Positions 4,005-64,000 of a stretch of DNA of 64,000 bases are shown piece after piece. Source of the stretch: Lacticigenium naphthae DSM 19658 (GTDB taxonomy: Bacteria; Bacillota; Bacilli; Lactobacillales; Carnobacteriaceae_A). Both the position numbers and the translations under genes were made by a program. The notes beneath the pieces were generated by a model. The model saw nothing but the letters and a program-made list of their open reading frames with translations, was not told the DNA's origin and did not search any database. How positions within the stretch are numbered: the first letter of the stretch is position 1; the number at the start of each line of letters is the position of its first letter. Location of the stretch: assembly GCF_000425865.1 (NCBI RefSeq), contig NZ_AUEG01000002.1, positions 124,001-188,000 of the forward strand. Direction: 5' to 3'.

Positions 4005-4022
4005 TTGTGAAATAAGTAACAA
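4005..4022. promoter_or_regulatory. Rex-type operator 2, next to the adhE -35 box
   Basis: TTGTGAAATAAGTAACAA keeps the same 18-bp spacing as the Rex consensus, with a perfect left half. It ends 4 bp before the predicted -35 element, where a bound repressor would block RNA polymerase. Confidence 0.7.
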
Positions 4023-4026
4023 ACAG

Positions 4027-4055
4027 TTGTTTTTGTTTGAAACACCCTCTATAAT
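4027..4055 (+). promoter_or_regulatory. Predicted adhE promoter
   Basis: TTGTTT (4027-4032) and TATAAT (4050-4055) have a 17-bp spacer. The expected transcription start near 4062 lies inside the third Rex-type site. Confidence 0.75.
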
Positions 4056-4060
4056 TGGTC

Positions 4061-4078
4061 TTGTGAACAAGATAACAA
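4061..4078. promoter_or_regulatory. Rex-type operator 3 at the adhE transcription start
   Basis: TTGTGAACAAGATAACAA has the same TTGTGA-N6-TAACAA form as operator 2. It covers the predicted +1 region, 18 bp before the start codon and just before the GGGGG ribosome site. Confidence 0.65.
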
Positions 4079-4096
4079 ATCCAAGGGGGAGTCAAG

Positions 4097-6715
4097 ATGG
4101 CTACAAAAACAACTGAGAAAAAAGATAAACAAGTTACAGAAGACGCACAAACAGTCGTAAATACATTAACTCAAAGAGGTCTAGAAGCTTTAAGTGTACT
4201 CGAAACATTTAATCAAGAAGAGGTCGACCATATTGTTCATCAGATGGCCTTAGCTGCAGTTGATAAACATATGGATTTAGCTAAATTGGCTGTGGAAGAA
4301 ACTGGCCGTGGCGTTTACGAAGATAAATGCATGAAAAATTTATATGCTTCAGAAAATATTTGGCATGTAATCAAAAAAAATAAAACCTGTGATATCATCG
4401 AAGACAATGAAGTCGATCAAATTATAAAAGTAGCTGCTCCCGTCGGTGTGGTAGCCGGTCTCATACCAACTACCAATCCAACTTCTACAACGATCTTCAA
4501 AGCTATGATCGCAATTAAAACAAGAAATCCCATCATCTTTTCTTTCCATCCAAGTGCAGAAATTTGTTCAATCGAAACAGCTAGAATTCTATATGAAGCT
4601 GCTATTAAAGCCGGAGCTCCTAAACATTGTATCCAATGGATCGAAAACGGCTCAATGGAAAAAACAGCTGGTTTAATGAATCACCCAGATGTTGCTGTTG
4701 TTTTAGCAACAGGTGGTTCTGCAATGGTTAAAGCAGCTTACTCAACTGGAAAACCAGCCTTAGGCGTTGGACCCGGAAATGTCCCTTCTTATATCGAAAA
4801 AAGCGCTCCTATCAAACGTGCAGTAAATGATATCATTGTTTCTAAAACATTTGACAATGGTATGATTTGTGCTTCTGAACAAGCTGTTATCGTTGACAAA
4901 GAAATCTACGCTGACGTCAAAAAAGAATTTTTAGCACGAAATGTATATTTTGTGAAACAAGACGAGTTAAGTGCATTAGAAAAAGTTATGCTGAATGAAA
5001 ATAAAACAGGTGTAAACGCAAAAATTGTAGGTATGCATGCACGTGGCATTGCTGCTTTAGCTGGAATCAAAGTCCCTGAAACAACTAAAATGCTTATTGT
5101 TGAACTTGAAGGAGCTGGTCCTGACTATCCATTGTCACGCGAAAAGCTTTCTCCTGTCTTGGCAATGATGAAAGCTGAATCACATGAACATGGTTTTGAT
5201 TTATGTAAAAAAATGCTCGATTTAGATGGTCTTGGGCATTCTGCAGCCATTCATACAAGAGACAATCAATTGGTAGAAGAATTTGGAAAACAAATGAAAG
5301 CTTGTCGTATTTTAGTGAATTCTCCTTCTTCACAAGGTGGGATCGGTGACTTATATAATCACAACATCCCATCACTAACCTTGGGTTGTGGAACTTATGG
5401 TAGAAACTCTGTTTCTCATAATGTTTCATCATTCGACTTATTAAACATTAAAACAATTGCGAAAAGGAGAAATAATATGCAATGGTTTAGATTACCAGAT
5501 CGTATCTACTTTGAAGAAAACTCAATCCGTTACTTGAGAGACATGCGTGACATAGAACGCGTCTTTATCGTTTGTGATGATGGAATGATGAAATTGGGTT
5601 ATGTCAATACGGTTATCGAGCAATTGAAACAACGCAATAATCGTATTGCTTACACTATCTTCTCTGATGTGGAACCAAACCCTTCTACAAATACAGTAAA
5701 TAGAGGCGTAGAAAAAATGAACGACTTCCAACCGGATACTATTATTGCTATCGGTGGAGGATCTCCAATGGATGCTGCGAAAGCTATGTGGTTATACTAT
5801 GAACATCCAGAAGCTGACTTCTTTGGAGCAAAACAGAAGTATTTAGATATCCGCAAACGTACCTACAAAATCGATCCTATGTCTAAAGCAAAATTAGTCT
5901 GTGTGCCAACAACATCTGGTACAGGATCTGAAGTTACACCATTTGCCGTTATCACAGACAGCGAAACACACATTAAATACCCACTAGCTGATTATGCTTT
6001 AACACCAGACGTAGCGATCATCGACTCACAATTTGTCTACAGTGTACCTAAATCTGTTGCGGCTGATACAGGTATGGACGTATTAACTCATGCAATCGAA
6101 TCTTATGTTTCTGTTCTAGCAAGTGACTATACCAAAGGATTAAGTTTACAAGCTATCAAATTAGTCTTTGATCACTTACGCAACTCTGTCGAATACGGAG
6201 ACGAAGAATCTCGCGAAAAAATTCACAACGCTTCAACCATTGCCGGTATGGCATTCGCCAATGCCTTCCTTGGAATATCTCACTCCATCGCTCATAAGGT
6301 CGGCGGAATTTGGGGATTGATCCATGGACGGACTAATGCAATCTTACTTCCACACGTTATTCGCTACAATGCAATCGACCCGCAAAAACATACGATGTGG
6401 GCAAAATATGAATACTTCAGAGCACATGAAGATTATGCAATGATTGCACGTTACTTGGGATTTGCAGGAAATACAACCGAAGAATTAGTTGAATCGCTTG
6501 CAACAGAAGTAAACAAATTAGGCGAGGATGTTGGTATCAAAATGAGCTTCAAAGAACAAGGTGTCACAGAGGAACAATTGAAACGTGACGGAGATCGCCT
6601 TGCAGAATTAGCATTTGAAGACCAATGTACAACTGCCAATCCAAAACAACCCTTAATTAGTGAATTAAGAGAAGTCCTCAACCAAGCTTATTACGGTGAC
6701 ACAAACGCAAAGTAA
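4097..6715 (+). CDS. adhE: Bifunctional acetaldehyde-CoA/alcohol dehydrogenase AdhE
   Basis: This 872-residue protein is full-length AdhE. The N-terminal CoA-acylating aldehyde dehydrogenase domain (about 1-445) has its catalytic cysteine at C258 in NGMICASEQ. A linker leads to the iron-dependent alcohol dehydrogenase domain (about 460-872) with GGGSPMDAAKA for NAD binding and the metal-ligand histidine region HSIAHKVGG and HGRTNAILLPH. It reduces acetyl-CoA to ethanol in two NADH-using steps and forms cytoplasmic spirosomes. Three Rex-type sites upstream suggest induction when the NADH/NAD ratio is high. Confidence 0.97.
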   Translation: MATKTTEKKDKQVTEDAQTVVNTLTQRGLEALSVLETFNQEEVDHIVHQMALAAVDKHMDLAKLAVEETGRGVYEDKCMKNLYASENIWHVIKKNKTCDIIEDNEVDQIIKVAAPVGVVAGLIPTTNPTSTTIFKAMIAIKTRNPIIFSFHPSAEICSIETARILYEAAIKAGAPKHCIQWIENGSMEKTAGLMNHPDVAVVLATGGSAMVKAAYSTGKPALGVGPGNVPSYIEKSAPIKRAVNDIIVSKTFDNGMICASEQAVIVDKEIYADVKKEFLARNVYFVKQDELSALEKVMLNENKTGVNAKIVGMHARGIAALAGIKVPETTKMLIVELEGAGPDYPLSREKLSPVLAMMKAESHEHGFDLCKKMLDLDGLGHSAAIHTRDNQLVEEFGKQMKACRILVNSPSSQGGIGDLYNHNIPSLTLGCGTYGRNSVSHNVSSFDLLNIKTIAKRRNNMQWFRLPDRIYFEENSIRYLRDMRDIERVFIVCDDGMMKLGYVNTVIEQLKQRNNRIAYTIFSDVEPNPSTNTVNRGVEKMNDFQPDTIIAIGGGSPMDAAKAMWLYYEHPEADFFGAKQKYLDIRKRTYKIDPMSKAKLVCVPTTSGTGSEVTPFAVITDSETHIKYPLADYALTPDVAIIDSQFVYSVPKSVAADTGMDVLTHAIESYVSVLASDYTKGLSLQAIKLVFDHLRNSVEYGDEESREKIHNASTIAGMAFANAFLGISHSIAHKVGGIWGLIHGRTNAILLPHVIRYNAIDPQKHTMWAKYEYFRAHEDYAMIARYLGFAGNTTEELVESLATEVNKLGEDVGIKMSFKEQGVTEEQLKRDGDRLAELAFEDQCTTANPKQPLISELREVLNQAYYGDTNAK

Positions 6716-45026: not shown

Positions 45027-45998
45027 TTGAATAATCAGGTTCCTGAAAAAATTACACCAAAGAGAGCCCAGATGAATACCATTAGAAAGTATGAACTGTT
45101 GCCAGAGAAGAAGTATAGACTAAAATTGTTTTTTTTGTTAATTATAGACGCATTAATAATATTTACTTACAGGAATTTAAAGCTAGAAGGTTCAGCCAGC
45201 GTACCTATTGATATAAATATTAGTGAGATAAGTAATATTATTATAGCTGTAGTTATCTATACTATGCTTTTTATAGGATTTTTTATTGCGTATTGCATTG
45301 TAAGGAATATATCTAAGATATTAAAAGGTGTCCTCGGTGGTGTAAAGTTTATAATTAATATGTTAAATCCATTTTATTCTGGAGGTAGAACTTATAAAAG
45401 TAAAAATGGGAAAAATTATAAAAAATATCTGCAGGAAGAAACGGAACGGGAAAAAAAACAAGGGAAATCTGAACCATTCTTATATTTTAGGGAAACCTTT
45501 ATAGGTAAGAATTTTAGAGGATATCTACTTCTACTGCATGTGTTGTTCTATCTTGAATTTTTAACGACGGCAACATCTGCGGACATTTTTCGCTCGTTTA
45601 ATATATATAGCATACAATTTATAGTAACTTTCATACTGTATGTTTTATTATCAAAAGAACCTGTTAGAACTAAAAAGATATCCGAAATGCATTTGAAAAA
45701 GGCTTTTAAGTATTACTGTGGTCCCAATGAAGAACCTTTAAGTGACTCAGAAAAAGAGACATTTGATGAAAACTTTAAAGTAAGTATTAATAGACGGTCT
45801 TCCCATAAAAAAGGGTATTTTAAAAGCGGAATTTATCATAACCAAGAGTTCCACTATACAGTGCACGTACATGTATTAGATTTAAAATTAGGATTTCGTT
45901 ACCTTCTTATTTATACAAGTAACAGCAATTACGAATACTGGGATATGTCTAAAGGTATAGAAATACTTACTCAAAAAGGCGTATATACGTATGATTAG
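45027..45998 (+). CDS. Orphan multi-pass membrane protein of unknown function
   Basis: This 323-residue protein is not one I recognise. It has four likely transmembrane helices: LKLFFLLIIDALIIFTY (about 33-49), IIIAVVIYTMLFIGFFIAYC (70-89), GYLLLLHVLFYLEFLTTA (about 163-180) and FIVTFILYVLL (about 196-206). A Lys/Glu-rich cytoplasmic stretch lies between helices 2 and 3 and a soluble C-terminal domain of about 110 residues ends the protein. The TTG start follows AGGAGGA. It is much more AT-rich than the flanking genes and sits between an MCP relic and an IS21-like end, so it was probably acquired horizontally. Confidence 0.7.
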   Translation: MNNQVPEKITPKRAQMNTIRKYELLPEKKYRLKLFFLLIIDALIIFTYRNLKLEGSASVPIDINISEISNIIIAVVIYTMLFIGFFIAYCIVRNISKILKGVLGGVKFIINMLNPFYSGGRTYKSKNGKNYKKYLQEETEREKKQGKSEPFLYFRETFIGKNFRGYLLLLHVLFYLEFLTTATSADIFRSFNIYSIQFIVTFILYVLLSKEPVRTKKISEMHLKKAFKYYCGPNEEPLSDSEKETFDENFKVSINRRSSHKKGYFKSGIYHNQEFHYTVHVHVLDLKLGFRYLLIYTSNSNYEYWDMSKGIEILTQKGVYTYD

Positions 45999-51635: not shown

Positions 51636-54600
51636 GTGAAAACACAAAAAAAGCCAGTGCTTACTCATTTTATCACGCTTCTTTTCCTTCTGTTTCAATT
51701 CATTCAATTTATCCCACTGGGTTTAGTTTCCTCTATCACAGCTTCAGCTCAAGCCGCTAATACAACTACTCTGTTTTCAGATGGTTCCGGTTCGAGTAAT
51801 GCAACATGGAGCGCGAGTGCAGATGGAAAACAAATCAATTGGTCTGTTACTGTGAATCAGAATGAAACAGAAAAAGAAGCCTCTCCTTCAGTTGAAATTA
51901 GTATTCCTTCAAATGTCGGAGAACCTAAAATTGTAAGTGCATCTTTAAATGGCACAAATTTAAGTGGTGTAACCTTCTCATCAGTCAATGGACGCTACGT
52001 ATTTAATCCTCAAACATACTCGACCACAGCACAAAAACTTCAAGTTGAATTTATCACTCCAGTAAGTGATAGTTCCTCCACCACTCTCGCTTTTTCCTTA
52101 GGTAGTAACATTAAACTACAAGAAAGCCCTTCTCCGTCTTCGTTAAAAGCTATTTCTGTTCACAATCTATTTGCACAATTAGAAGCTGAACGTTTAGTTG
52201 CTGAAGAAGCCGCTGCCGAAAAAGTTGCGCAAGAAGAGGCTGAACGTGTAGCCGCTGAAGAAGCTGCTGCTGAAATAGCTGCACAAGAAGAGGCTGAACG
52301 TGTAGCCGCTGAAGAAGCTGCTGCTAAAATAGCTGCACAAGAAGAGGCTGAACGTGTAGCTGCTGAAGAAGCCACTGTGCAAGAAGAAATTATTGAGGAA
52401 AAAGTAGAAGAACCAATCACTGAAGAGGATATTTCAGAAGATCTTTCATCTGAAGAACCTGTTCAACCAACAGATGGAGAAGACGCTATCGAAGAGATTT
52501 TACCTGAATCAGAAAACAAAGAAGAGCCTGTTTCAGAAGATGTACAAGCTCCTTTAGTAGATGAAACGGAAGAGAATTCCCAAGCAGTTACTCCTAATGT
52601 AAAAGAAGAAATGACTGACTTCCAAACAATTGAAAAAGCTGCTGTTACTGCTGAACCATCTGATATTTCAATACTATCTGGTGGCAGTTATACGATCGAT
52701 TTCTCTGCATATGATCCTGATTACTATGATTTTAAACTCCCATTAAATTACCCAACGCCCCCTTCTGGACGTGCTGAAGATCCTATGCCTGGTGCAAATA
52801 GTGCGCATACTGTGGAATCATTGCAACCTCGTAACTTAGCATTGGGTCAAATCGTTCCCTTTGAAGCTGAAATCACAGTAAGTGGAACGACCTCACCTGA
52901 GGATGGCACCATTATCTTTACTGCCGGATGGGATACAGTCACTACAAATGGATCCGATTTTGGTTTTGATCCAGACTACAAAGTATTTGCTGCCTTCGTT
53001 GATACGCTGTCTCCATATTCAATCGATCCCGACGGTAATGCTACCGTTGCCATCGTTGGAAACGAAGTCGTTGGAACGGAAATTCAAGGAACGTTTGAAG
53101 TATCCGGACTCAATGATGGAGATACTATTATCGTAGAGATGTGGGTAGTTCTCAAAGATTCATTGCCGGATAAAGTTGGAAACACTGTACAAACACGCTT
53201 GATCAGCGGAGAAACCAGTACAGGAGATACCGTCAATACAGGTAATCAAACCGTTCCGTTAAATCAATCCGGACAATTCACATCTGTAGAAGCGGATGTA
53301 AGCATTATTAAATCAGATGAACCAGATCCATTGTATTCAACTGAAACACTAACTTATACGATCACAGTAACAAATAATTCTACGGATACAGTTGCTAATG
53401 GAATTGTCGTTGAGGACACACTTGATCCTTTCGTTACTTTTGTCAGTGCGAGTGATTCTGGAGCGCATATGACCAGTGATCCTGATGGTAGTGGAGGTGT
53501 GGTTACTTGGCCGGCATTTGCTTTAGAACCGGGCGGATCGAGAGACTTTACATTGACCGTAACAGTTGATGAAGATGCTCCGACTGAAACATTCTTAGGG
53601 ACAACTTCTGACGACCGTGGTTCCGCTTCGGATATACGTTTGGCTACTGCAGACTTATCGAACGTTGTGATCATTGCTTCACTGATCACCAGTGACCCAA
53701 ATCTTGCGAATAATATGTGGCAAGAACCAACCAACGTGCTTCCTCGGATGTCTGTCGAAGCTAGAAAAATTTGGGTGGGTGGCCCAGAAGAAAGCCACCG
53801 TGCTGTTACACTAACACTTAGCCGTACGACAGATGATATAAACTATGAGATCGTCACGGTCACCCCAACCATTACAGATGAAGATGAGACAAATCATAGT
53901 TTCGATTATCTCTGGAGTGGTCTACCTCAATATGATTCACAAGGAAATGAATATTCATATAAAGTCACCGAAGTCGAAACGATTGAAAATTATAAATCCA
54001 CAATTGTTTATGACACTGAAAATGATATCTGGCTAGTCACAAACACCTATGAAAGTCCAAAAGAACCCGTGAATGCTACCAAAACATGGATCAATGGACC
54101 AGAAGATAAACCAACGATCTACTTCCAACTCTATCGTCAAATCGGTGAGGGAACCCCCGAAGCCGTGGGCCAACCTGTTTTAGTAGACGATGTACAAAAT
54201 ACAGGGACCTACTCTATCCCAGTTTATATGGGTGAACATGACGTTTACGATACTAATGGTGTCGCTTACACCTATTATGTAGAGGAATCACCTGATTTGG
54301 ATGATTATATCACTACGGAAAATGGCTTACTGGTTACAAATGAATACACCATCCCTCAAATGTCGATCGCTGGAACAAAATCTTGGTTCAATGACACACA
54401 AGCCCATCGCCCCGACTCTTTGACTGTCACTCTCTACCGCATGATTGCTGGAGGAACTATAGAAGAAGTTACTTCCACAACAACAACTGCGAATGAAAAC
54501 TGGGCTTACGATTTTGGAGAACAAGATGCCACAGATATCAACGGAATAGCTTATAACTACTCTATTACTGAAAGCGTCCCTACAAATTACATTGAGGACT

Positions 54601-55112
54601 ACGCAGAAGCCTACTATATAGAATCTGAGTTGCAACTTGATGTATCCAATACACTTGTAATGGGCGATCTCTTCATCTTGAAAACAGACATGCTTGGTAA
54701 TCCAATAGTGAACAACCCATCCGAATTCAAGCTCACCCGTATTCTCCCCGAAGTTCTAGAAGAGAATCAATTCACACTCACACAATCCACCAATTCATCC
54801 GGTCACTTGATTTTTGAAGACTTATTAGCAGGAACTTATCTCCTAGAAGAATTAACAGCTCCTAGTGGATTCAACTTACTTGAAGAAGATTTAACTATTG
54901 TTATAGAAAAAGGTGAAAATGGAGAAACAATTGTTCGAATGGACGAAACGATTATTACAGAAGAAAATCCATTACTCATCAAAAACAAACCTACACAAAC
55001 TTTGCCTTCTACAGGAAGCATGGGCACAACCCTCTTCACCGTTTTAGGTATCGCGTTGATGGGTGGGACATTATACGGTCTCAGAAAGAAAAATAGAAAA
55101 ACAAACCAATAA
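51636..55112 (+). CDS. Large LPXTG-anchored adhesin (pilus tip-like)
   Basis: This 1158-residue surface protein has a signal peptide (FITLLFLLFQFIQFIPLGLV, cleavage near residue 40) and a beta-rich adhesive N-terminal region. Three 18-residue Ala/Glu repeats (about 184-240) and an acidic Glu-rich stretch follow, then a DUF11 domain (about 552-700, TLTYTITVTNNSTDTV), several Cna-B repeats (from about 705, 810, 907 and 1008), and the sorting signal LPSTG with a membrane helix and RKKNRKTNQ tail. It should be attached to peptidoglycan or a pilus by sortase. The GTG start follows GGAGGTG. Confidence 0.9.
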   Translation: MKTQKKPVLTHFITLLFLLFQFIQFIPLGLVSSITASAQAANTTTLFSDGSGSSNATWSASADGKQINWSVTVNQNETEKEASPSVEISIPSNVGEPKIVSASLNGTNLSGVTFSSVNGRYVFNPQTYSTTAQKLQVEFITPVSDSSSTTLAFSLGSNIKLQESPSPSSLKAISVHNLFAQLEAERLVAEEAAAEKVAQEEAERVAAEEAAAEIAAQEEAERVAAEEAAAKIAAQEEAERVAAEEATVQEEIIEEKVEEPITEEDISEDLSSEEPVQPTDGEDAIEEILPESENKEEPVSEDVQAPLVDETEENSQAVTPNVKEEMTDFQTIEKAAVTAEPSDISILSGGSYTIDFSAYDPDYYDFKLPLNYPTPPSGRAEDPMPGANSAHTVESLQPRNLALGQIVPFEAEITVSGTTSPEDGTIIFTAGWDTVTTNGSDFGFDPDYKVFAAFVDTLSPYSIDPDGNATVAIVGNEVVGTEIQGTFEVSGLNDGDTIIVEMWVVLKDSLPDKVGNTVQTRLISGETSTGDTVNTGNQTVPLNQSGQFTSVEADVSIIKSDEPDPLYSTETLTYTITVTNNSTDTVANGIVVEDTLDPFVTFVSASDSGAHMTSDPDGSGGVVTWPAFALEPGGSRDFTLTVTVDEDAPTETFLGTTSDDRGSASDIRLATADLSNVVIIASLITSDPNLANNMWQEPTNVLPRMSVEARKIWVGGPEESHRAVTLTLSRTTDDINYEIVTVTPTITDEDETNHSFDYLWSGLPQYDSQGNEYSYKVTEVETIENYKSTIVYDTENDIWLVTNTYESPKEPVNATKTWINGPEDKPTIYFQLYRQIGEGTPEAVGQPVLVDDVQNTGTYSIPVYMGEHDVYDTNGVAYTYYVEESPDLDDYITTENGLLVTNEYTIPQMSIAGTKSWFNDTQAHRPDSLTVTLYRMIAGGTIEEVTSTTTTANENWAYDFGEQDATDINGIAYNYSITESVPTNYIEDYAEAYYIESELQLDVSNTLVMGDLFILKTDMLGNPIVNNPSEFKLTRILPEVLEENQFTLTQSTNSSGHLIFEDLLAGTYLLEELTAPSGFNLLEEDLTIVIEKGENGETIVRMDETIITEENPLLIKNKPTQTLPSTGSMGTTLFTVLGIALMGGTLYGLRKKNRKTNQ
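52185..52388 (+). repeat. 54-bp tandem repeats within the adhesin gene
   Basis: Three complete 54-bp units begin at 52185, 52239 and 52293, and a partial fourth starts at 52347. Units 2 and 3 are almost identical. Each encodes AERVAAEEAAAEIAAQEE or a variant, predicted to be alpha-helical. Copy number could vary by slippage or recombination. Confidence 0.9.
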
Positions 55113-55136
55113 AAAAGTAAAGGAGAGTTGAAGACA

Positions 55137-56867
55137 ATGACTAAATACAAAGCAAAAATTATAGGCTTGTTGATGGGACTGATGATGATTCTATCCGTTC
55201 TTGCACCTACAATGGCAATGGCATCTGTTGTACCATCAGATAATGCTCGTCCAGCAACTGGTGATCTAATGATCCACAAAATTCAATACAACGGGCCTAC
55301 AGCTCCGGTTATTACCAACAATGGACTGGAACTCCCATCACTTCCTGCAGATACTAAACCTCTTGCAGGAGTCGAATTTACACTATATCAAGTCGACGAG
55401 GATGCTGTTCTACCTATAGACACCACTGGAATGACTGCTTATCGAGTAGAAACTTCAGATTCTGATGGCTTAGCAGACTTTCTGGAATTACCAGCCGGCC
55501 GCTACTATGTCGTAGAAACTGATTATCCATCCGGTGTCGAAGAATTTAGTGATCCCTTCCTCGTCGATGTACCCATGATGCATCCTGATGGGGACAGATG
55601 GAACGAAGTAGTTCACGTTTATCCTAAGAACCAATTAGTCTTAGGTGCTGTAGAATTGACAAAATGGGCAGAAATGGTAGATGGACCAGTACTTCCTGGG
55701 GCCGTATTCAGTTTATTCCACGCTGAAGATGATTCTTTAGTACAAAGCGGATTAACAACTGATGAATACGGAAAAATATTTGTAGGTGAACTTGAAGTAG
55801 GTAGCTACTATTTCATGGAAACTGCAGCTCCAACAGGATACGGATTAGATCAAACGAAGATTCCTTTTGAAATCACATTAAGTAATCATGCTTACAATGA
55901 CGACGGTTTGATTTTAGATGAAGTTCTTTCAGTCGAACTAATCGACTATGACTTACCAGCCATTGAAAAATTTGTAACGGAAATAGATCGAAAAGTTGAT
56001 ACTGCTGATTACTTTGAAGAAATCACTTGGATAATCAGACCAGAAGTACCAACTAACATTGAAACTTATAGTTCCTTCAAAATTGTCGATACGTTTGGAG
56101 ATACACTCACTTATTTAAATGATATTTCAATAACAGGTGATGGTGTGGCAATTGATGTTGCTGATTTCACTGCATCTGGAGTCGCTTTGAACGATGAAGG
56201 TGGTACTTTGACCATTGACATTACACCGAGCGCACTTGAAGGTGTAGATGAGTTATTGATAACATTTAAAACACATATCAATGAAAATGCAGTTATGGGA
56301 ATAGATTATGAAAATAATGTCATGTTAGAATTTAATAACGGATTTTCCGCCTATACTGCTGAAGAAGAAGATGCTCCTTACGTTCATACTGGCGGTAAAC
56401 CATTTGTCAAAGAAACTAAAGCAGGCGAAGGTTTACCTGGAGCAGAATTTGTTATCTATAAATTGGTAGATGGCGTCAAACAATATTTAGATAGCAATCA
56501 TGACTGGGGCTTGATGGGAGATGCACACCCATTTGTTTCGGATGGGGATGGCTACTTCGAAGTGAAAGGTTTAGCTTACGGAGATTACTATTTACATGAA
56601 ACAAAAGCTCCTGAAGTTGATGGCATTCAATATCAATTGCTTAACAATGATGTACCATTCACTGTGGCTGCTGACAGTTTCTATAGCGACCCAACAAGCA
56701 TTGAGCTTCCAACTGCTACGCCTACTGCTATTCGCGCTAACATCGTAAACAGTCCTGAGATCAATCTACCTCAAACAGGTGGTATGGGCACGTTAGTATT
56801 CAGTCTACTTGGTTTAGGATTGATGGGCTCTTCAGTCAAACTCTATAAAAAAACATCCAAGAAATAA
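55137..56867 (+). CDS. Major pilin (backbone) with LPXTG sorting signal
   Basis: This 576-residue pilin has a signal peptide (IIGLLMGLMMILSVLAP). The pilin motif WNEVVHVYPKN supplies the polymerising lysine, and the E-box regions YYVVETDYPSG and YYFMETAAPTGYGL surround an isopeptide-bond domain. It ends LPQTGGMGTLVFSLLGLGLM plus a basic tail. Class C sortase joins the lysine of one subunit to LPQT of the next. The ATG at 55137 is used because the upstream TTG at 55128 overlaps the AGGAG site. It lies 24 bp after the adhesin gene. Confidence 0.92.
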   Translation: MTKYKAKIIGLLMGLMMILSVLAPTMAMASVVPSDNARPATGDLMIHKIQYNGPTAPVITNNGLELPSLPADTKPLAGVEFTLYQVDEDAVLPIDTTGMTAYRVETSDSDGLADFLELPAGRYYVVETDYPSGVEEFSDPFLVDVPMMHPDGDRWNEVVHVYPKNQLVLGAVELTKWAEMVDGPVLPGAVFSLFHAEDDSLVQSGLTTDEYGKIFVGELEVGSYYFMETAAPTGYGLDQTKIPFEITLSNHAYNDDGLILDEVLSVELIDYDLPAIEKFVTEIDRKVDTADYFEEITWIIRPEVPTNIETYSSFKIVDTFGDTLTYLNDISITGDGVAIDVADFTASGVALNDEGGTLTIDITPSALEGVDELLITFKTHINENAVMGIDYENNVMLEFNNGFSAYTAEEEDAPYVHTGGKPFVKETKAGEGLPGAEFVIYKLVDGVKQYLDSNHDWGLMGDAHPFVSDGDGYFEVKGLAYGDYYLHETKAPEVDGIQYQLLNNDVPFTVAADSFYSDPTSIELPTATPTAIRANIVNSPEINLPQTGGMGTLVFSLLGLGLMGSSVKLYKKTSKK

Positions 56868-56886
56868 CTTCAATCGTTGATCCTCA

Positions 56887-56917
56887 GGGATGGGACTCCT
56901 GTCTCATCCCTCTTCTT
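56887..56917 (+). terminator. Intercistronic hairpin between pilin and sortases
   Basis: GGGATGGGAC pairs with GTCTCATCCC around TCCT and is followed by TCTTCTT. It may partly end transcription so that pilin is made in excess over sortase. Confidence 0.55.
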
Positions 56918-56960
56918 ACATACACATCTTGTATGAAACAAAAGAAGGGAGGGATTCCTC

Positions 56961-57842
56961 TTGAAAAAGTTCCATTTTTCTAAACCTTCTATTTCCTCTG
57001 CTTTACTCCTTATTGGTTTTCTCATCGGTCTTTCCATCTTTCTTTACCCCGTTGTCACTCAGATTTATTCTCAAATGAACCAAACTCATGTTATTGATGT
57101 CTATCAAGATTCTTTAAATGATTTTACTCAAGAGGACTTAGAAGAAATAAAAGATAAAGCTTCTGAATATAATCAGTCTCTAACTGGAGAGACTTCTTTC
57201 ATAGAAGATCCTTTTGCAGAAACAGATGAAGCTGAAGTCTCTGCAATGGACGTAACAAGTTCTTTTAATGTCTTTACGGATTCTTTGGGGGAAGTCCTTG
57301 GATATATTGACATCCCTGATATAGAAGCTTATTTACCCATATATGCTGGTACAAGTGATGCTGTTCTTCAAAAGGGCATCGGGTTATTTGAAAATACTTC
57401 CTTTCCTACTGGTGGCGGAGGAACACATTCCGTTCTTACCGGACACCGAGGGCTTCCCACTTCAAAGTTATTTACCGATTTACCAGACGTGGCTATTGGA
57501 AATGTATTTTATTTGCATGTATTAGATGAAGTTCTTGCTTATGAAGTAAAAGAAACCCAAGTCGTCTTACCTTACGAGACAGATCACATCGCTATTCAAG
57601 AAGGAAAAGACTTGGTTACATTGATTACTTGTACCCCTTACATGATCAATACTCATCGCTTACTTGTCACAGGCGAACGTATCCCCTATACACCTGAAGA
57701 AGAATTAGTATCTTCTAAAGAAACTGATTTACCTCTCTCACCTCTTATCACCATATTCCTTCCAGCGATCATCCTACTGACTCTTTTGATCTCCTTTATC
57801 TGGTATCAAAAGAAAAAAAGGGGAGTGAATTTAAATGAATAA
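56961..57842 (+). CDS. Class C sortase 1 (pilus polymerase)
   Basis: This 293-residue sortase has an N-terminal helix (ALLLIGFLIGLSIFLYPVV), a lid region with DPF (IEDPFAETDE), the catalytic His in VLTGHRGLP, C224 in LVTLITCTPY, Arg in HRLLVTGER and a C-terminal membrane helix followed by a Lys/Arg tail. This is the complete class C layout for joining pilins. The TTG start follows GGGAGGG. Its last 8 bases overlap the next sortase gene. Confidence 0.92.
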   Translation: MKKFHFSKPSISSALLLIGFLIGLSIFLYPVVTQIYSQMNQTHVIDVYQDSLNDFTQEDLEEIKDKASEYNQSLTGETSFIEDPFAETDEAEVSAMDVTSSFNVFTDSLGEVLGYIDIPDIEAYLPIYAGTSDAVLQKGIGLFENTSFPTGGGGTHSVLTGHRGLPTSKLFTDLPDVAIGNVFYLHVLDEVLAYEVKETQVVLPYETDHIAIQEGKDLVTLITCTPYMINTHRLLVTGERIPYTPEEELVSSKETDLPLSPLITIFLPAIILLTLLISFIWYQKKKRGVNLNE

Positions 57843-58587
57843 AAAAAATCTGTTTGCTCTCTTTATTTTTTTGATCGGTCTAGGACTGTTTCTTTATCCT
57901 ACTATTTCTCATTATGTTAATGACTATTCTATACACAAAGAAATCGAAGAATTTCAATTAGTGTCTGCTGAACCCTTGAATCCTGGGGAAAAAGAATCAT
58001 TATGGAAAGATATGGAAGAATACAATGATTCACTAATCGGAAATGAAAACAATGCTGTTCAAGATGCATTCACTGAAGAAGTAGTTGCCTCTAATCCCTT
58101 TTATCAAGTCGAAGACGGAGAAAAACCAATCGAAGCTGAAATTGATGCAGATCAAACTTTTGATGTTCATTCTTCTCTTGCATCCAGTCCTTTTTATTTC
58201 GTCATTCGTATACCCAAAATCAACGTAGAGTTGCCCATCTATATGGGTGCGAGCGATCAGAATCTCTTAAAAGGTGCTGCTCAAATTACAGGTACCTCTC
58301 TCCCACTTGGTGGAGCAAACACGCATTCTGTTATTGCGGGACATCGAGGGACGTTGAATCACCGAATGTTTTTAGATTTAAACAAATTAGGAGCTGGCGA
58401 TACCTTTGAGATTCAAACTTTGGATGGACTGTTAACCTATCGCGTCACTGGGAGTAAAGTCGTTTACCCCAATGAAGTAGATACCTTACAAATCAAAGAA
58501 GGAAAAGATTTGGTTACACTGGTCACTTGTTTGAAATATCCGATGAATTATAAACGATTACTCGTTTATGGCGAGCGTGTCGATTAA
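57835..58587 (+). CDS. Class C-like sortase 2 without C-terminal helix
   Basis: This 250-residue sortase has an N-terminal helix (LFALFIFLIGLGLFLYPTI), the catalytic His (VIAGHRGTLNHR), Cys in LVTLVTCLKYP and Arg in YKRLLVYGER. The lid region has DAF/NPF instead of DPF/W, and the protein ends right after the catalytic barrel, without the usual second membrane helix. It may process a different pilin or anchor the finished pilus. It starts inside the previous gene with GGGGAG upstream. Confidence 0.88.
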   Translation: MNKKNLFALFIFLIGLGLFLYPTISHYVNDYSIHKEIEEFQLVSAEPLNPGEKESLWKDMEEYNDSLIGNENNAVQDAFTEEVVASNPFYQVEDGEKPIEAEIDADQTFDVHSSLASSPFYFVIRIPKINVELPIYMGASDQNLLKGAAQITGTSLPLGGANTHSVIAGHRGTLNHRMFLDLNKLGAGDTFEIQTLDGLLTYRVTGSKVVYPNEVDTLQIKEGKDLVTLVTCLKYPMNYKRLLVYGERVD

Positions 58588-58640: not shown

Positions 58641-59585
58641 TCAACCTTTTACTACGGTAGTTACAGAGCCATCTTCATCAAATAGTTTATCGACATTCTC
58701 TAAAGAAGTAATGATGGCTTTCCCTTCTTCTGTACTCTCGACAAATTGAATAGCTGCTTCAACTTTTGGAAGCATACTACCGGGAGCAAATTGATTGTCC
58801 TTAATGTACTCGCGCAGTTCGCTAGTACTTACCGTTTCTAATTTTTCCTGATTTGGTTTATTCCAATTCACATAAATATTATCTACTCCTGTGAGAATAA
58901 TGAGGTAATCTGCCTCAACTAATTCGCTTAATTTTGCGGCAGCAAAATCCTTATCGATTACGGCTTCTATACCCTTAAATCCTTCTTCTGAAGCAACAAC
59001 AGGAATACCGCCGCCTCCAGCTGAAATGGTGACAACATCATTATTTATCAAACTTTCGACAATAGGATATTCTAAAATATTTACAGGTTTGGGAGAAGGC
59101 ACTACTTTTCTCCAGCCTCTGCCTGCGTCTTCAATAAAAGTGCCCTTGCCATTTTTCATTTCTTCCTCAGCTTTTTGTTCTGATAAAAATGGACCAATCG
59201 GCTTAGATGGTTTTTTAAATGCTGGATCATCCGGTGATACTTGCACCTGTGTGATCAAAGACACTACTTGTTTTTCAATATTATTCGCTATCAGTGCCTC
59301 TCTCAATGAGTTTTGCAACCAATACCCAATACTTCCTTGGGTCATTGCAACACAGCTATCCAATGGTAGCGCCGGATTCTCTTTTGAATCAGTTCCTTGC
59401 TGTTGCAGTAAGAGATTCCCCACTTGCGGCCCATTTCCATGTGTAATAATCAACTTATGTCCCTCTTTAATGAAGTTCACAAGGTATTCACTTGTTTTTC
59501 TTAAAGACTCTTTTTGAGCTTCTGCAGTAGGAACGTCAGATAAAATCGCATTTCCTCCCAAAGCCACCACAATTTTTTTAGGCAT
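58641..59585 (-). CDS. arcC: Carbamate kinase
   Basis: This 314-residue protein begins [20 protein letters not shown]. It has [25 protein letters not shown] and [20 protein letters not shown], the signatures of carbamate kinase. It makes ATP from carbamoyl phosphate and ADP, releasing ammonia and CO2. No arginine deiminase genes are nearby; the neighbours point to carbamoyl phosphate from oxalurate instead. The ATG at 59585 follows AAAGGAG; an upstream start at 59624 lacks a ribosome site. Confidence 0.93.
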
Positions 59586-59625
59586 AGTATTTTCTCCTTT
59601 GCAATTTGTACAGTACCCTATCAAA

Positions 59626-60459
59626 CTAATAACTTCTTAAAACAATAGATAGTCCATACAGAGTATCCCAACCAGAAGTATGACCATACTCAGTAATATC
59701 TTTGATCACTCTATCCAATTGTTTTTCATTACCCTCTTGAACAACAGTCATAAACTCAACAAATCGAGAACTTGTATACCCAGACAATAAAGCTTGATAA
59801 TAAGCCTGACTCACATCCGTCGTATTGTTCCGAGCAAGAGACTCTTTCAAGGAATAATACCATTGCAAAGAATCTTCTAAAGAATATAGCATCATATACA
59901 TACCCATTAGAATATCATCTCCGCTAGGTGTTAACCCTTTTCCTCTTCCTACAAGGTAATCAAATAGTCTTTTATTTGTGGCTGTATTCTTAAATTCATC
60001 TCGGATCACGTCGCTTAGAATGTGTTCATCGGCAATATTTAGACCCATTTTATTTTCTATATCCAACTCTTCTAATTTTGTGCTCACTTTTTTTAAGAAA
60101 AATGGCTCTGCAGTCTTTATCAATGGAATGCGACAATTAAATTCTGTGAAATTCTGAATAGTGACTTTCAAAATTCTGTATTGTGAATAAATCATCATTT
60201 TTTCTTTGTGAACAACAACCTTATTTCCAATTTGGAGAAAAGCGAGGATTGTTTCCATGTCAGTTTCAGATATTCCAAATCCGAAAGCAGAAATCCCCAG
60301 CTCGATCTTTCCAAAGTGAATTAATTTTCCTTGAAGAATTATATTGAAACTGCTCTTAAAAATTGAATGAATTTCTCCCATACCGGTATTTAATAAATCA
60401 TGGGACAAAAAAGTGCTTTTTATCCCATGATCCACGCTAAATATATGATTCGTGATCAT
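59626..60459 (-). CDS. DUF2877 protein, AllH-like oxamate carbamoyltransferase subunit
   Basis: This 277-residue soluble protein contains the DUF2877 region with [20 protein letters not shown] (about 169-188), followed by helices. In E. coli the DUF2877 protein AllH (YlbF) is encoded with FdrA/AllF and AllG and has been shown to form an oxamate carbamoyltransferase. The neighbours here match that gene set. Its individual role (catalysis or structure) cannot be read from sequence. It lies 3 bp after the FdrA-AllG gene. Confidence 0.85.
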
Positions 60460-60462
60460 AAT

Positions 60463-63400
60463 TTATCCGACTGAAATTCCCATTTTTCCAGCATATGCAG
60501 TTAAAGCTTTTTCAAAACAAGCCAATGGGGCTTTTACAGTTCCGGCCCCTACTTGTCCCAATCCTGCAATTTTATGAGCAATACCGGTATTGATCACAGG
60601 GGTTATTCCTGTTTCTACTACCTTGCGGATATCGATCCCCAATGAAGCACCTCGGAAATCCCAAGTTGGAATCGTCCAATTAGGGTTTTGAGAAACACAA
60701 ATTTCAGACATCTCATTTGATACTCTCAATGCATCGCCAAATCCACCGGCACCTACGAAGCGAGTTACTCCTGGAGCTGCTATAATAGCCATGCCACCTA
60801 CGCCAACTGTTTCAGCAATAGCACTATCTCCAATATCAGGATTAGCATCTTCTTCGGAGAACCCTGTAAAATACAATCCATTTGGCGTATTAACAGGAGC
60901 TGTAAACCACTGATCTCCCATACCACTAATACGGATACCAAAGTCTTTACCGTTACGGGTCAATGCTGTCACAATAGTACCCTCTTCTAGTTTACGAGCA
61001 TAATCAGTGATCGCTTTTCCTGTAGCCATCATAATATTCAAAAAGAATTGATCTGTTTTGGCTAAAAACTCTATTACATCTTTTTTATCTTTTTCATCAA
61101 TAGCTAGTTGAACAAGAGTTGGGGTAACCTCTTTAAGGAAAATAAGTGATGCAGCAATGTTTCTTTGGTGGAACTCATCTCCCATTGTGATTGCTTTAGC
61201 TACGATTACATTCAGGTTTAGTCCACCCTCTAAGTTTCTTATTGCTTGTCCTAATACTGGGCCAAGGACATCTCTCATCCATAATAATCTATCAACAACT
61301 TCTTGAGAATATGCTCCAAAACGGAGAACTTTGCCGATACCTTCGTTTAAAGTACAGTACGCTGTCGTATCGTCTTCTTTATTCTTCACAACTAACACAG
61401 GCATATTTCCAGAAGTGATACCTCCCATTGGACCTACAGCATCAACGTGATGACATGGAATAAAGGTTACTTCCCCATTTTCAAGTTGTTCTCTTGCTTC
61501 TTCTTCACTTTTTGCCCATCCTTCAAATAGACTCGCTCCTACACACGATCCTTGCATCGGTCCAGTCATTTCGTTGTACTGAATAGGAGGACCCGCATGT
61601 AATAATACTTTCCCATTTAATTCTTCAATCACAGAATTAGCAGGAACAACATCCGTCAAGAAAGGCTGCGAGTTTTTCATGCGAGAAATGACTTTATTAT
61701 TTGATTCATCAATTTCATTGGCATGATCAGACAGACGATTCAAAATGTTAATTAATTTTTTGTTTCCCCCTGCCATTGGCTTCCAATCATACTGAACAGC
61801 TTTTCCACCATGTTTTTCAATTGATTCAGTAAAACTCTCTAACCCAATATTGATTACTTCGGGAACGCTATTGAATAGACTATCAACTTTAGCACTCAGT
61901 TTAGGGAGCTGCATTTTTGTCCCAGTATATTCTTTAACAATTTTTCTTTGCTCTGAAAATTCTTTGCCCATTAATTTTAATGCTAATTGAACAGCACGTG
62001 CGTTGCTTTTTTCTACTAATACACCCGCTTCTTTCAAAAGAGAAATGCTTTCTTCATAATTTTGAGGATCTAGATTGGTTCCCACAACGGTACCAATAAT
62101 TTTTAGCGGCGTTCTTTTTTCTTTCGCATTTTCTAAAACTTCTTCTATGACCGGTTTTAAAGCCGATGCCATATCTGGATGTGCACCGTATCCTAAAACG
62201 ATATCCAACAAAATAATTCCTGTTGTTTCGTCACTTGCGGCTTCTCGTATTTTTTTGATTCTAACTTCTGGATCGATCATTGGATGTGGTTTTCCTTGTG
62301 TATAAACGTCATCCCCCAAATCCATGATTTCAAATCCTTTAGTGTTAAGAATATACCCCTCTTTTTTGGTTAATTCACCTAAATCTAAGGCTTCTGAAAC
62401 AAGCATTCCTGCTTCGTTAGCTAATGTACCGCCAGAATATAACCCTTTGACCGTTGTTTTTTCTGAAAAATCAACAGTTACCGTTGTATCGATCGGACTG
62501 AAATAAGAATCTTTGACTTTAGTACCATTGGCCAAATCAATAGCTATGTTAGCCGTTTCTTCTAAGGTATGTGCCAAATAGACATTACCAATATGACTTT
62601 CTGGGTTCTCTCCCAAGAAAATTGCAACAACCGGTTTGGAAACGGCTTGTAACAATTCCATTACTTCATCACGCACTCTTTTTGCAGGCGGCTTGGAGAT
62701 TACCACAATAACTTCTGTAGGCTCATGATTTTCCAGACCAATGATTGCATCTTTCATCGTCGTTCCACCAACTTTTTCATGAAGGTCACGTCCACCTGTG
62801 CCTATAGCATGCACGACGCCTCCACCTAAACGCTCAATAATAGTAGTGACTTCTTGTATTCCCGTTCCTGAAGCTCCTACGATCCCAATATTTCCTGGGT
62901 TGACAACATTTGTAAATGCCATCGGAATACTTGAAATGATTCCCGTCCCACAATCAGGTCCCATGAGTAATAGACCCTTTTCATGTGCTTTATTTTTTAG
63001 TCTTACCTCATCTTCTAATGAAACATTATCACTAAAAGAAAATACATGGAGACCTTTGTCTAAAGCTTTCTCGATTTCATCTGCAGCATACGTTCCTGGA
63101 ATTGATATTAAAGCCATATTACTATCTGGAAGTTGCTCTAAAGCGCCTTCCCAATTTCGTACATTTTTTATAGAATCGGTACTTCTCTTAACTGAAAGAT
63201 CATTTAAAAAATTATCGATTACTTCTAATACTTTATCTACTAACTCTTTATCTTCTGTATCCACCACGATCACCATATCATTTGGAGTTGCATTCCCTAC
63301 TTCAGGAGTATACAAATCGGCTGATTGAAAAATATCTTTATTGGCGTCTGTTCCCATCATTACCTGACTCTGATTAACTCCATCAAGAGAACTAACTTCG

Positions 63401-63465
63401 TTAGTCAAAAGCATTAAATTTATTGAATCTTGATAACTATTTTCTTTGATCACTGTATATAACAT
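60463..63465 (-). CDS. Fusion of FdrA (AllF) and AllG (DUF1116), oxamate carbamoyltransferase subunits
   Basis: This 1000-residue protein joins two subunits that are separate in E. coli. Residues 1 to about 505 are FdrA, with a CoA-binding-like fold (NIGIVGASGTGIQEVTTIIE, about 192-211) and the succinyl-CoA-ligase-like region ILLDIVLGYGAHPDMASALK. A linker (about 506-528) leads to the DUF1116/AllG part (about 530-1000), with HAGPPIQYNEMTGPMQGSCV, FIPCHHVDAVGPMGGI and FRGASLGIDIRKVVETGITP. An in-frame ATG near residue 518 has no ribosome site, so it is a true fusion. It likely transfers carbamoyl between oxalurate and phosphate, feeding the carbamate kinase. Confidence 0.88.
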   Translation of the reverse strand: MLYTVIKENSYQDSINLMLLTNEVSSLDGVNQSQVMMGTDANKDIFQSADLYTPEVGNATPNDMVIVVDTEDKELVDKVLEVIDNFLNDLSVKRSTDSIKNVRNWEGALEQLPDSNMALISIPGTYAADEIEKALDKGLHVFSFSDNVSLEDEVRLKNKAHEKGLLLMGPDCGTGIISSIPMAFTNVVNPGNIGIVGASGTGIQEVTTIIERLGGGVVHAIGTGGRDLHEKVGGTTMKDAIIGLENHEPTEVIVVISKPPAKRVRDEVMELLQAVSKPVVAIFLGENPESHIGNVYLAHTLEETANIAIDLANGTKVKDSYFSPIDTTVTVDFSEKTTVKGLYSGGTLANEAGMLVSEALDLGELTKKEGYILNTKGFEIMDLGDDVYTQGKPHPMIDPEVRIKKIREAASDETTGIILLDIVLGYGAHPDMASALKPVIEEVLENAKEKRTPLKIIGTVVGTNLDPQNYEESISLLKEAGVLVEKSNARAVQLALKLMGKEFSEQRKIVKEYTGTKMQLPKLSAKVDSLFNSVPEVINIGLESFTESIEKHGGKAVQYDWKPMAGGNKKLINILNRLSDHANEIDESNNKVISRMKNSQPFLTDVVPANSVIEELNGKVLLHAGPPIQYNEMTGPMQGSCVGASLFEGWAKSEEEAREQLENGEVTFIPCHHVDAVGPMGGITSGNMPVLVVKNKEDDTTAYCTLNEGIGKVLRFGAYSQEVVDRLLWMRDVLGPVLGQAIRNLEGGLNLNVIVAKAITMGDEFHQRNIAASLIFLKEVTPTLVQLAIDEKDKKDVIEFLAKTDQFFLNIMMATGKAITDYARKLEEGTIVTALTRNGKDFGIRISGMGDQWFTAPVNTPNGLYFTGFSEEDANPDIGDSAIAETVGVGGMAIIAAPGVTRFVGAGGFGDALRVSNEMSEICVSQNPNWTIPTWDFRGASLGIDIRKVVETGITPVINTGIAHKIAGLGQVGAGTVKAPLACFEKALTAYAGKMGISVG

Positions 63466-63623: not shown

Positions 63624-64000
63624 ATGTCGATCGATATGGAAAAAGTACTTCACTATCCAAGTTTAGAGAAAGCTATATTATTATCAGAAAATGCTGGATT
63701 AAAAAATGAGGTTACCGGAGCAATGGTCATGGAGGCTTTAGATGTATCTAATTGGGGCCGACCAGGATTGATCCTATTTACGAGTTATTACGCTTTTGAA
63801 AACATTTCAGAAAAAGAACTGGAAGATTTTTTCAAAAAAGCTAAAGAAATCGGAATTGCCGGTTTTGTAATAAAAATAGATCGTTTCGTGGATGAAGTTC
63901 CACCTGTTTTTATAGAAAATTGTATAGAGAATGATATGACTCTCATACAAATTGGCAAGCAGACAAGATACGAAAAAATTATAAATGAGATTTTAGAATC
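63624..64000 (+). CDS. PucR-family transcriptional regulator (3' end outside window)
   Basis: The visible N-terminal 125 residues start MSIDMEKVLHYPSLEKAILL and match the PucR N-terminal sensor domain, with SNWGRPGLILFTSYYAF and the Ile/Phe-rich FVIKIDRFVDEVPP. PucR regulators control purine and allantoin degradation in Firmicutes and end in a C-terminal helix-turn-helix that is not visible here. Its divergent position suggests control of the oxamate carbamoyltransfer operon. The ribosome site AAAGTAGG is moderate. Confidence 0.82.
   Translation, partial: MSIDMEKVLHYPSLEKAILLSENAGLKNEVTGAMVMEALDVSNWGRPGLILFTSYYAFENISEKELEDFFKKAKEIGIAGFVIKIDRFVDEVPPVFIENCIENDMTLIQIGKQTRYEKIINEILE

What the first reader, a model, noticed from the sequence alone, without database searches (positions are those of the whole stretch)
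60463..63465. FdrA and AllG (DUF1116) subunits are fused in one 1000-residue protein
The two oxamate carbamoyltransferase subunits known separately in E. coli are joined in frame, with complete domains on both sides and no ribosome site at the junction. The fusion supports a fixed 1:1 contact of these subunits.
Basis: partly seen in the sequence, partly recalled or inferred. Interest (0 to 1): 0.68.

Follow-up and report, generated by a model that had tools for sequence, protein, structure and literature searches.

The report
Fused two-in-one oxalurate-splitting enzyme subunit
Two enzyme subunits that E. coli makes as separate proteins are made as one long protein here and in many Gram-positive bacteria, and this genome has the enzyme without the allantoin pathway that normally feeds it, so it probably gains energy from oxalurate taken up from outside.

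Summary
The fusion is real. Window 60463-63465 (-) is one open 1000-codon frame: a complete AllF/FdrA half (residues 1-578) and a complete AllG/DUF1116 half (about 583-1000), joined almost without linker and with no start site found at the joint. The fusion is not rare: 73 of the 80 related loci fetched carry it, in four phyla. It arose at least twice, or was split again. The AllG half is 62% identical to E. coli AllG and groups with it, not with the paralogous DUF1116 proteins (44-52%; PDB 3CLQ 45%). AllH and carbamate kinase follow in the operon, so the best reading is a fused subunit of oxamate carbamoyltransferase: oxalurate + Pi -> oxamate + carbamoyl phosphate, then ATP. Like 62 of the 80 loci, its cluster has no allB, allC or allE beside it (14 of those 62 keep allD) and instead has PucR, an alpha/beta hydrolase and a carrier, which suggests use of external oxalurate or a close precursor. 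No activity could be tested. The searches made found no paper on the fusion. New variant of a known enzyme.

The parts
61732..63465 (-). AllF (FdrA) half of the fusion, residues 1-578: CoA_binding (190-285) and Ligase_CoA (342-496) domains plus conserved C-terminal piece 535-567
   Evidence: NF004760 1-554/555; Pfam; E. coli AllF 39% identity over 583 columns
61720..61731 (-). junction, residues 579-582, between two helices (569-579 and 582-597)
   Evidence: end of FdrA match and start of AllG match; AF2 model, mean pLDDT 90-95 in blocks 571-600; no in-frame SD/start found
60463..61719 (-). AllG (DUF1116) half of the fusion, residues 583-1000, with stop
   Evidence: PF06545 318.5 bits; 3CLQ TM-score 0.95 by target length; E. 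coli AllG 62% identity
63473..63478 (-). Shine-Dalgarno AGGAGG 7 nt before the ATG of the fusion
   Evidence: sequence read
59626..60459 (-). AllH (DUF2877), third subunit, 277 aa, 3 nt after the fusion's stop
   Evidence: PF11392 85.7 bits; motifs at 171-182, 213-214 and 259-265 with positions unchanged in 35 of 35 aligned members
58641..59591 (-). catabolic carbamate kinase (ArcC/AllK type), 316 aa from the ATG at 59591
   Evidence: TIGR00746 arcC 417.7 bits, over cut-off
63624..63998 (+). start of a divergent PucR-type regulator (543 aa, continues beyond the window; L002:7624-9255), followed beyond the window by an alpha/beta hydrolase (L002:9252-10112) and an MFS transporter (L002:10331-11602, minus strand)
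   Evidence: PF07905 and PF13556; ORFs; hydrolase and MFS Pfam hits

Best explanation
The 1000-aa protein is the fused AllF+AllG subunit of an oxamate carbamoyltransferase. With AllH it splits oxalurate with phosphate into oxamate and carbamoyl phosphate, and the carbamate kinase next door turns carbamoyl phosphate + ADP into ATP, CO2 and ammonia. In this genome the module stands alone: the allantoin genes were not found, so oxalurate (or a precursor one step away) is most likely imported, probably by the MFS carrier that lies beside the cluster, with PucR as the switch. Shown here: the fusion, full domains, operon, grouping with E. coli AllG, absence of upstream genes over cut-off, association with carriers. 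Inferred: substrate, direction, uptake, regulation. The chemistry within AllF/AllG/AllH is not known; an inference is that the succinyl-CoA-synthetase-like AllF half hosts phosphorolysis, the same kind of step as acyl-CoA + Pi -> acyl phosphate, while carbamate kinase does the ATP step.
For: Domain and model matches. AllG half 62% identical to E. coli AllG, part of the purified OXTCase (PMC11326118; abstract, discussion and passages seen), against 44-52% to the other DUF1116 rows. Tree of 124 AllG rows: one branch (SH-aLRT 100, length 1.21) holds E. coli AllG, the split AllG of allantoin operons and all 76 fused rows. The window's own 11-row clade (97) includes members with allC beside them: L019, L027, L028, L033, L056, L059, L073. 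Operon with AllH and arcC. Own genome without AllB/C/D/E over cut-off. Of 62 loci without allB/C/E in the flank, 56 have at least one of three carrier types; in the 18 with them the MFS type occurs in 1, SDF in 2, c13 in 0. The MFS beside the window's cluster is 60-73% identical to an MFS in 33 of those 62 loci. Oxalurate use with oxamate transcarbamylase is on record for E. faecalis (passages in PMC3282769 and PMC6022934).
Against: No activity data. The AllF half is only 39% identical to E. coli AllF, and AllH is far from E. coli AllH (position G180, unchanged in 35 of 35 aligned rows, is His there). The carrier's substrate is unknown, and SDF relatives in this genome are only 25-32% identical. 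Flanks were at most 8 kb and 22 of 80 loci are shorter than 18.9 kb, so absence of upstream genes is genome-wide only for G000 and the 59 relatives searched. treekit warned that the long E. coli branch may be misplaced. The solved E. faecalis V583 protein 3CLQ is of the 45% kind, so the Enterococcus physiology may rest on another gene.
Confidence: 0.7

Rival explanations
1. A catabolic transcarbamylase of the same family that acts on another ureido acid, not oxalurate; the substrate shifted when the module left the allantoin pathway.
For: No allantoin genes over cut-off in this genome. Loci without allB/C/E carry an alpha/beta hydrolase (52 of 62) and in some an amidohydrolase and a carrier (13 and 11 of 62), whose substrates are unknown.
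Against: The AllG half is 72-75% identical to AllG of allantoin operons L067, L068 and L069, and the window's own clade mixes members with and without allC beside them. No separate substrate clade is seen.
Confidence: 0.2
2. An acyl-CoA synthetase or ligase, as the NCBI name of the FdrA model says.
For: CoA_binding and Ligase_CoA domains; weak match to succinyl-CoA synthetase alpha; a His in an H-x-G setting at residue 291 in 39 of 40 fused rows.
Against: No ATP-grasp domain found. For the E. coli protein no succinyl-CoA synthetase activity was seen and oxamate:CoA ligase was argued against (passages of PMC8550087). Operon partners are AllH and carbamate kinase.
Confidence: 0.05
3. The frame is fused on paper only: the cell makes AllG separately by internal initiation, or the fusion is an assembly artefact.
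For: None found beyond possible start codons near the joint (ATG at codons 564 and 596).
Against: No SD-like sequence with an in-frame start in codons 541-640. 73 of 80 relatives share the fused frame. In split relatives a stop ends AllF and AllG opens a new frame.
Confidence: 0.03

Closest known systems
Oxamate carbamoyltransferase AllFGH (FdrA-YlbE-YlbF) with carbamate kinase AllK, Escherichia coli
   Same: Same three protein families in the same order followed by carbamate kinase; AllG half 62% identical; AllF half full length
   Different: AllF and AllG are one chain; a PucR-type gene lies divergent, where E. coli uses AllS (PMC12535856, passages); no allD/allC/allE/allB over cut-off; alpha/beta hydrolase and MFS neighbours
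Split AllF, AllG in allantoin operons of Bacillus, Listeria, Isobaculum, Psychrobacillus (L067-L069, L080, L082)
   Same: AllG 69-75% identical to the window's; carbamate kinase in the locus; alpha/beta hydrolase in L067-L069 and L080
   Different: AllF and AllG in separate open frames with a stop between, 4-49 nt from frame to frame, and allC, allE, allD beside them
Orphan allFGHK of ammonia-oxidising archaea and comammox (PMC12625717, passages seen)
   Same: allFGHK without upstream purine genes, proposed to use oxalurate made by others
   Different: The words fused and fusion do not occur in the main text; beside biuret genes. Whether these are of the E. coli clade was not tested.
E. faecalis V583 DUF1116 protein of unknown function, PDB 3CLQ
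   Same: Fold of the AllG half, TM-score 0.95 by target length, 45% identity
   Different: Stand-alone chain of 421 aa and, by its identity, in the 44-52% group; it was not itself placed in the tree

Membership tests
Oxamate carbamoyltransferase AllFGH | Complete AllF (FdrA) | tested here: met
   NF004760, 694.3 bits against cut-off 433, model 1-554/555
Oxamate carbamoyltransferase AllFGH | Complete AllG, grouping with E. coli AllG rather than with the paralogues | tested here: met
   PF06545 318.5 bits; 62% to E. coli AllG against 44-52% to paralogues; branch SH-aLRT 100 in a quick tree, with a long-branch warning for the E. coli row
Oxamate carbamoyltransferase AllFGH | AllH in the same operon | tested here: met
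   PF11392 85.7 bits against 25; conserved motifs
Oxamate carbamoyltransferase AllFGH | Catabolic carbamate kinase in the operon | tested here: met
   TIGR00746 417.7 bits against 358.25
Oxamate carbamoyltransferase AllFGH | Upstream allantoin genes (allB, allC, allD, allE) in the genome (usual context, not part of the enzyme) | tested here: not met
   None over cut-off in G000, 99.96% complete; E. coli rang as control in each
Oxamate carbamoyltransferase AllFGH | Carbamoyl transfer between oxalurate/oxamate and phosphate | not testable with these tools
   needs enzyme assay
Aspartate/ornithine transcarbamylase fold family | OTCace domains | tested here: not met
   no OTCace hit in the fusion or AllH; three OTCace-family matches lie elsewhere in the genome
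ADP-forming acyl-CoA synthetase / succinyl-CoA synthetase | ATP-grasp domain for nucleotide | tested here: not met
   in the AllF half only CoA_binding and Ligase_CoA found
ADP-forming acyl-CoA synthetase / succinyl-CoA synthetase | Phosphohistidine loop | tested here: inconclusive
   His291 in 39 of 40 fused rows, but the E. coli AllF stretch has no His there; equivalence to the SCS phosphohistidine is recalled, not shown

The most novel reading that the evidence does not exclude
A stand-alone oxalurate-burning module built round a fused AllFG enzyme is widespread in Gram-positive bacteria that cannot degrade allantoin. They import oxalurate, or a cyclic or esterified precursor that the conserved alpha/beta hydrolase or the amidohydrolase opens, and make ATP by substrate-level phosphorylation, much as others do with arginine or agmatine.
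Probability: 0.45. Interest if true: 0.55.

Novelty: new variant of a known kind. Interest (0 to 1): 0.4.

Why it matters
The genes for oxamate carbamoyltransferase were shown only in 2024, and its subunit ratio is unsettled: the E. coli paper estimates equal AllF and AllG from a gel, which the western blot did not show, and AlphaFold gave no larger complex (PMC11326118, discussion). A natural AllF-AllG fusion fixes that ratio at 1:1 and gives a simpler two-chain enzyme for structure work. The clusters without upstream genes point to use of oxalurate as an energy source of its own, and offer candidate carrier and hydrolase genes to test.

Tried and rejected
Rejected: junction at 505-530. Rejected: fusion as rare or as artefact. 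Rejected: the 829- and 850-aa open frames of G067 and G153 as partial fusions; no AllF match in the frames of L119 and L120. Rejected: acyl-CoA synthetase reading.

Led nowhere: fold of AllH. AlphaFold2 gives a confident model (pLDDT 93.0, pTM 0.91), but no PDB chain matches by sequence at E <= 1, Foldseek has nothing at E <= 0.001, and the second look gives at best Z 5.4 over 80 residues, in residues 2-86. This does not show that the fold is new. The C-terminal part was not searched alone.

Literature: no paper on the fusion turned up in searches for oxamate + carbamoyltransferase + fdrA, DUF1116, oxalurate / parabanic acid / transcarbamylase, oxalurate with S. or E. faecalis, FdrA + fusion protein + allantoin (no paper), oxamate carbamoyltransferase + Enterococcus, oxalurate alone, and DUF2877 or OXTCase names. 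These are listings; in PMC11326118, PMC3364942, PMC8550087, PMC12535856 and PMC12625717 I also searched for fused/fusion and found only reporter-gene fusions, gene fusion as a general method, or none. Only open-access papers are held. Domain databases may already list the architecture; I could not look.

Bias to keep in mind: the 80 loci were the best of 395 matches to the fused query, so 73 of 80 is not a prevalence. In the phylum sample 60 of 398 genomes, own included, had an AllG match and, besides the own genome, one (G373, 1013 aa) had an open frame long enough to be fused. All 30 loci fetched from that sample are 48-52% identical to the window's AllG half; they are mostly its best-scoring matches, and G373 was not fetched. 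Among the own genome and 59 relatives, 20 had AllG; of the 19 relatives with AllG, 10 showed a frame of 1000 aa or more, of which two (L091, L092) were checked by sequence.

Full report
OBSERVATION. The frame at 60463-63465 (minus) is open for 1000 codons. AllF (FdrA) fills residues 1-578 and AllG fills about 583-1000: NF004760 matches 1-578, Pfam AllG 666-881 and the two FdrA domains 190-285 and 342-496, PDB 3CLQ 584-992 and 3DMY 94-582. Aligned to E. coli, AllF covers 1-578 at 39% identity and AllG 585-997 at 62%. E. coli AllF ends one residue after the matched part and E. coli AllG starts four residues before its matched part, so there is hardly any linker. A simple scan found no SD-like sequence with an in-frame start in codons 541-640.

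THE JOINT. Across 40 fused rows the stretch 576-600 is variable in letters (mean conservation 0.52) but nearly constant in length: 18 rows lack one residue at position 582, and one insertion column follows 583. The AlphaFold2 model of the fusion (49 rows, pLDDT 87.2, pTM 0.78) puts helix 569-579 and helix 582-597 on either side of a short turn, with mean pLDDT of 90-95 in the blocks 571-600. The AllG half superposes on 3CLQ with TM-score 0.95 by target length; the AllF half matches 3DMY less well as a whole (TM-score 0.56 by target length, rmsd 20). This fits a defined contact between the halves; it does not prove it, and no AllF-AllG-AllH complex was modelled.

HOW COMMON. Of 80 loci fetched with the fused query, 73 are fused and 7 split: L067-L070, L075, L080, L082. 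They span Bacillota, Actinomycetota (Olsenella, Collinsella), Chloroflexota and a Fusobacteriota MAG. These are the best 80 of 395 matches, so this is no prevalence. Among 59 relatives (same family and order) 19 have AllG and 10 of these an open frame of at least 1000 aa; in a phylum sample 60 of 398 genomes, own included, have an AllG match and one besides the own genome a frame that long.

TWO KINDS OF DUF1116. Identity of AllG-like proteins to the window's is bimodal: 66-79% for the 73 fused loci; 69-75% for split AllG in L067-L070, L075, L080, L082, L085-L088 and L090; 62% for E. coli; and 44-52% for the rest (two extra copies in L074, then L084, L089, L096-L125). A second, split copy in L032 stands at 63%. 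In a quick tree of 124 rows the first group with E. coli is one branch (SH-aLRT 100, length 1.21; 90 rows: 76 fused, 14 split). The program warned that the long E. coli branch meets the long paralogue branch and that such joins may be false; the identities point the same way without the tree. The fused protein thus groups with the proven oxamate carbamoyltransferase.

ORIGIN OF THE FUSION. On AllF+AllG of 46 rows, 38 fused rows form one clade (99), and one fused protein, L079 of Paenibacillus radicibacter, is sister to the split genes of P. profundus, L075 (100). Holding all 39 fused rows together is rejected (AU p 1.6e-5). The labels come from the sequences, but I ran the test after one search had already shown L079 apart. 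So fusion arose at least twice, or one old fusion was split repeatedly; the counts cannot tell gain from loss. E. coli is a very long branch (2.26), which makes the rooting unsure.

SURROUNDINGS. Downstream: AllH (PF11392) and carbamate kinase (TIGR00746). Upstream, divergent: PucR regulator, then an alpha/beta hydrolase and an MFS carrier beyond the window. The genome (G000, 99.96% complete) has no AllD match, no AllC match, only a 25-bit cupin for AllE and a 26.5-bit match for allantoinase. E. coli rang as control in all four. Among the 10 relatives with a frame of 1000 aa or more, G005, G006, G014, G032 and G036 also lack all four over cut-off; G038 and G051 have AllD alone; G022 has AllD and AllE in two pieces on two contigs; G028 has AllC, D and E; G058 has AllB, D and E, and AllC just under cut-off (590.8 against 597.75 bits).

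Over the 80 loci (flanks up to 8 kb; 22 loci are shorter than 18.9 kb): 18 have allC at 50% or more identity to E. coli (12 fused, 6 split) and 62 have none of allB, allC, allE at that level (61 fused, 1 split); 14 of the 62 have allD. In the 62: MFS of the window's type 33, SDF carrier 46, carrier c13 11, amidohydrolase c11 13, at least one of the three carriers 56, alpha/beta hydrolase 52, PucR 57, carbamate kinase 45. In the 18: MFS 1, SDF 2, c13 0, c11 0, hydrolase 13, PucR 8, carbamate kinase 18. The identity thresholds were set by me after seeing the table. So loci without the upstream genes mostly carry a carrier instead. Relatedness was not corrected for. Own genome: the MFS lies 218 nt past the hydrolase gene; the amidohydrolase c11 was not found (an empty answer without a control), and SDF relatives are distant, best 32%.

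HOW IT LIKELY WORKS. The three genes were named as candidates in 2012 (PMC3364942, passages). Established for E. coli (PMC11326118; abstract, discussion and passages seen): OXTCase activity was measured with purified AllF-AllG-AllH, in the direction oxamate + carbamoyl phosphate to oxalurate, the reverse of the pathway step; AllK is the carbamate kinase (PMC9843812, passages). Inferred here: the fusion + AllH does the same. Oxalurate would come from outside. Its use as energy source through oxamate transcarbamylase, with E. faecalis as an example, is reported in passages of PMC3282769 and PMC6022934, which cite Vander Wauven 1986 and Tigier & Grisolia 1965 (parabanic acid as inducer); I saw only the titles of those two. 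AllH evolves fast (25-41% identity to the window's) yet keeps G171, G173, G175-P178, G180-D182, T213-T214, G259, S262, G263 and D265 in 35 of 35 rows; E. coli AllH keeps most of these motifs but has His at G180. So AllH probably contributes to the active site. AllG has residues unchanged in all 40 fused rows and all 8 split or paralogous AllG rows of the alignment: H623, H672, D763, E764, H766, R902. The AllF half resembles succinyl-CoA synthetase alpha plus its ligase domain, without ATP-grasp.

VERDICT. Real, correctly named, wrong junction, not rare. Novelty is a new variant (fused, and often without the allantoin pathway) of a known enzyme. The part worth following is the stand-alone oxalurate module with its unassigned hydrolase and carriers.

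Noticed in passing
L002:9252-10112 and 65 of 80 loci: An alpha/beta hydrolase near PucR or the fusion keeps a full catalytic set (HGGG, Ser114, Asp231, His259; 65-66 of 66 rows) and an invariant Arg183; nearest solved chains are 3h04 and 2qru, both uncharacterized. It occurs with and without allantoin genes; role unknown.
   Followed up: partly
L004:2603-3991 and 4017-5246; L071:2510-5289: A carrier-like protein without a Pfam match (c13) and a cytosine-deaminase-like amidohydrolase (c11) occur together in 11 of the 62 loci without allB/C/E; a candidate pair for importing and opening a cyclic ureide such as parabanate.
   Followed up: partly
L079:7944-11000 against L075:9819-11096: Separate AllF-AllG fusion in Paenibacillus radicibacter beside allC, allD and allE.
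   Followed up: yes
genome G000: No dihydroorotase over cut-off: 18 bits with pyrC_multi (11 of 14 controls over cut-off) and 26.5 bits with the allantoinase model, where 52 of 59 relatives reach 175 bits or more and 7 do not; possible pyrimidine auxotrophy. The E. coli-type PyrC model was not tried.
   Followed up: partly
window 51636-58587: LPXTG pilin-like pair (Cna_B/DUF11 protein and GramPos_pilinD1 protein) with two sortases, convergent with the carbamate kinase gene.
   Followed up: no
G197:C46, G277:C75, G425:C60: Tandem pairs of AllG-family genes in other members of the phylum; the paralogue DUF1116 group may be a set of transcarbamylases with other substrates.
   Followed up: no
residue 291 of the fusion (window 62593-62595): A His in H-x-G setting is kept in 39 of 40 fused rows but absent in E. 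coli AllF; it may sit where succinyl-CoA synthetase has its phosphohistidine (recalled, not tested).
   Followed up: partly
window 45027-45998: A 323-aa open frame without any Pfam or NCBIfam match at the thresholds used.
   Followed up: no
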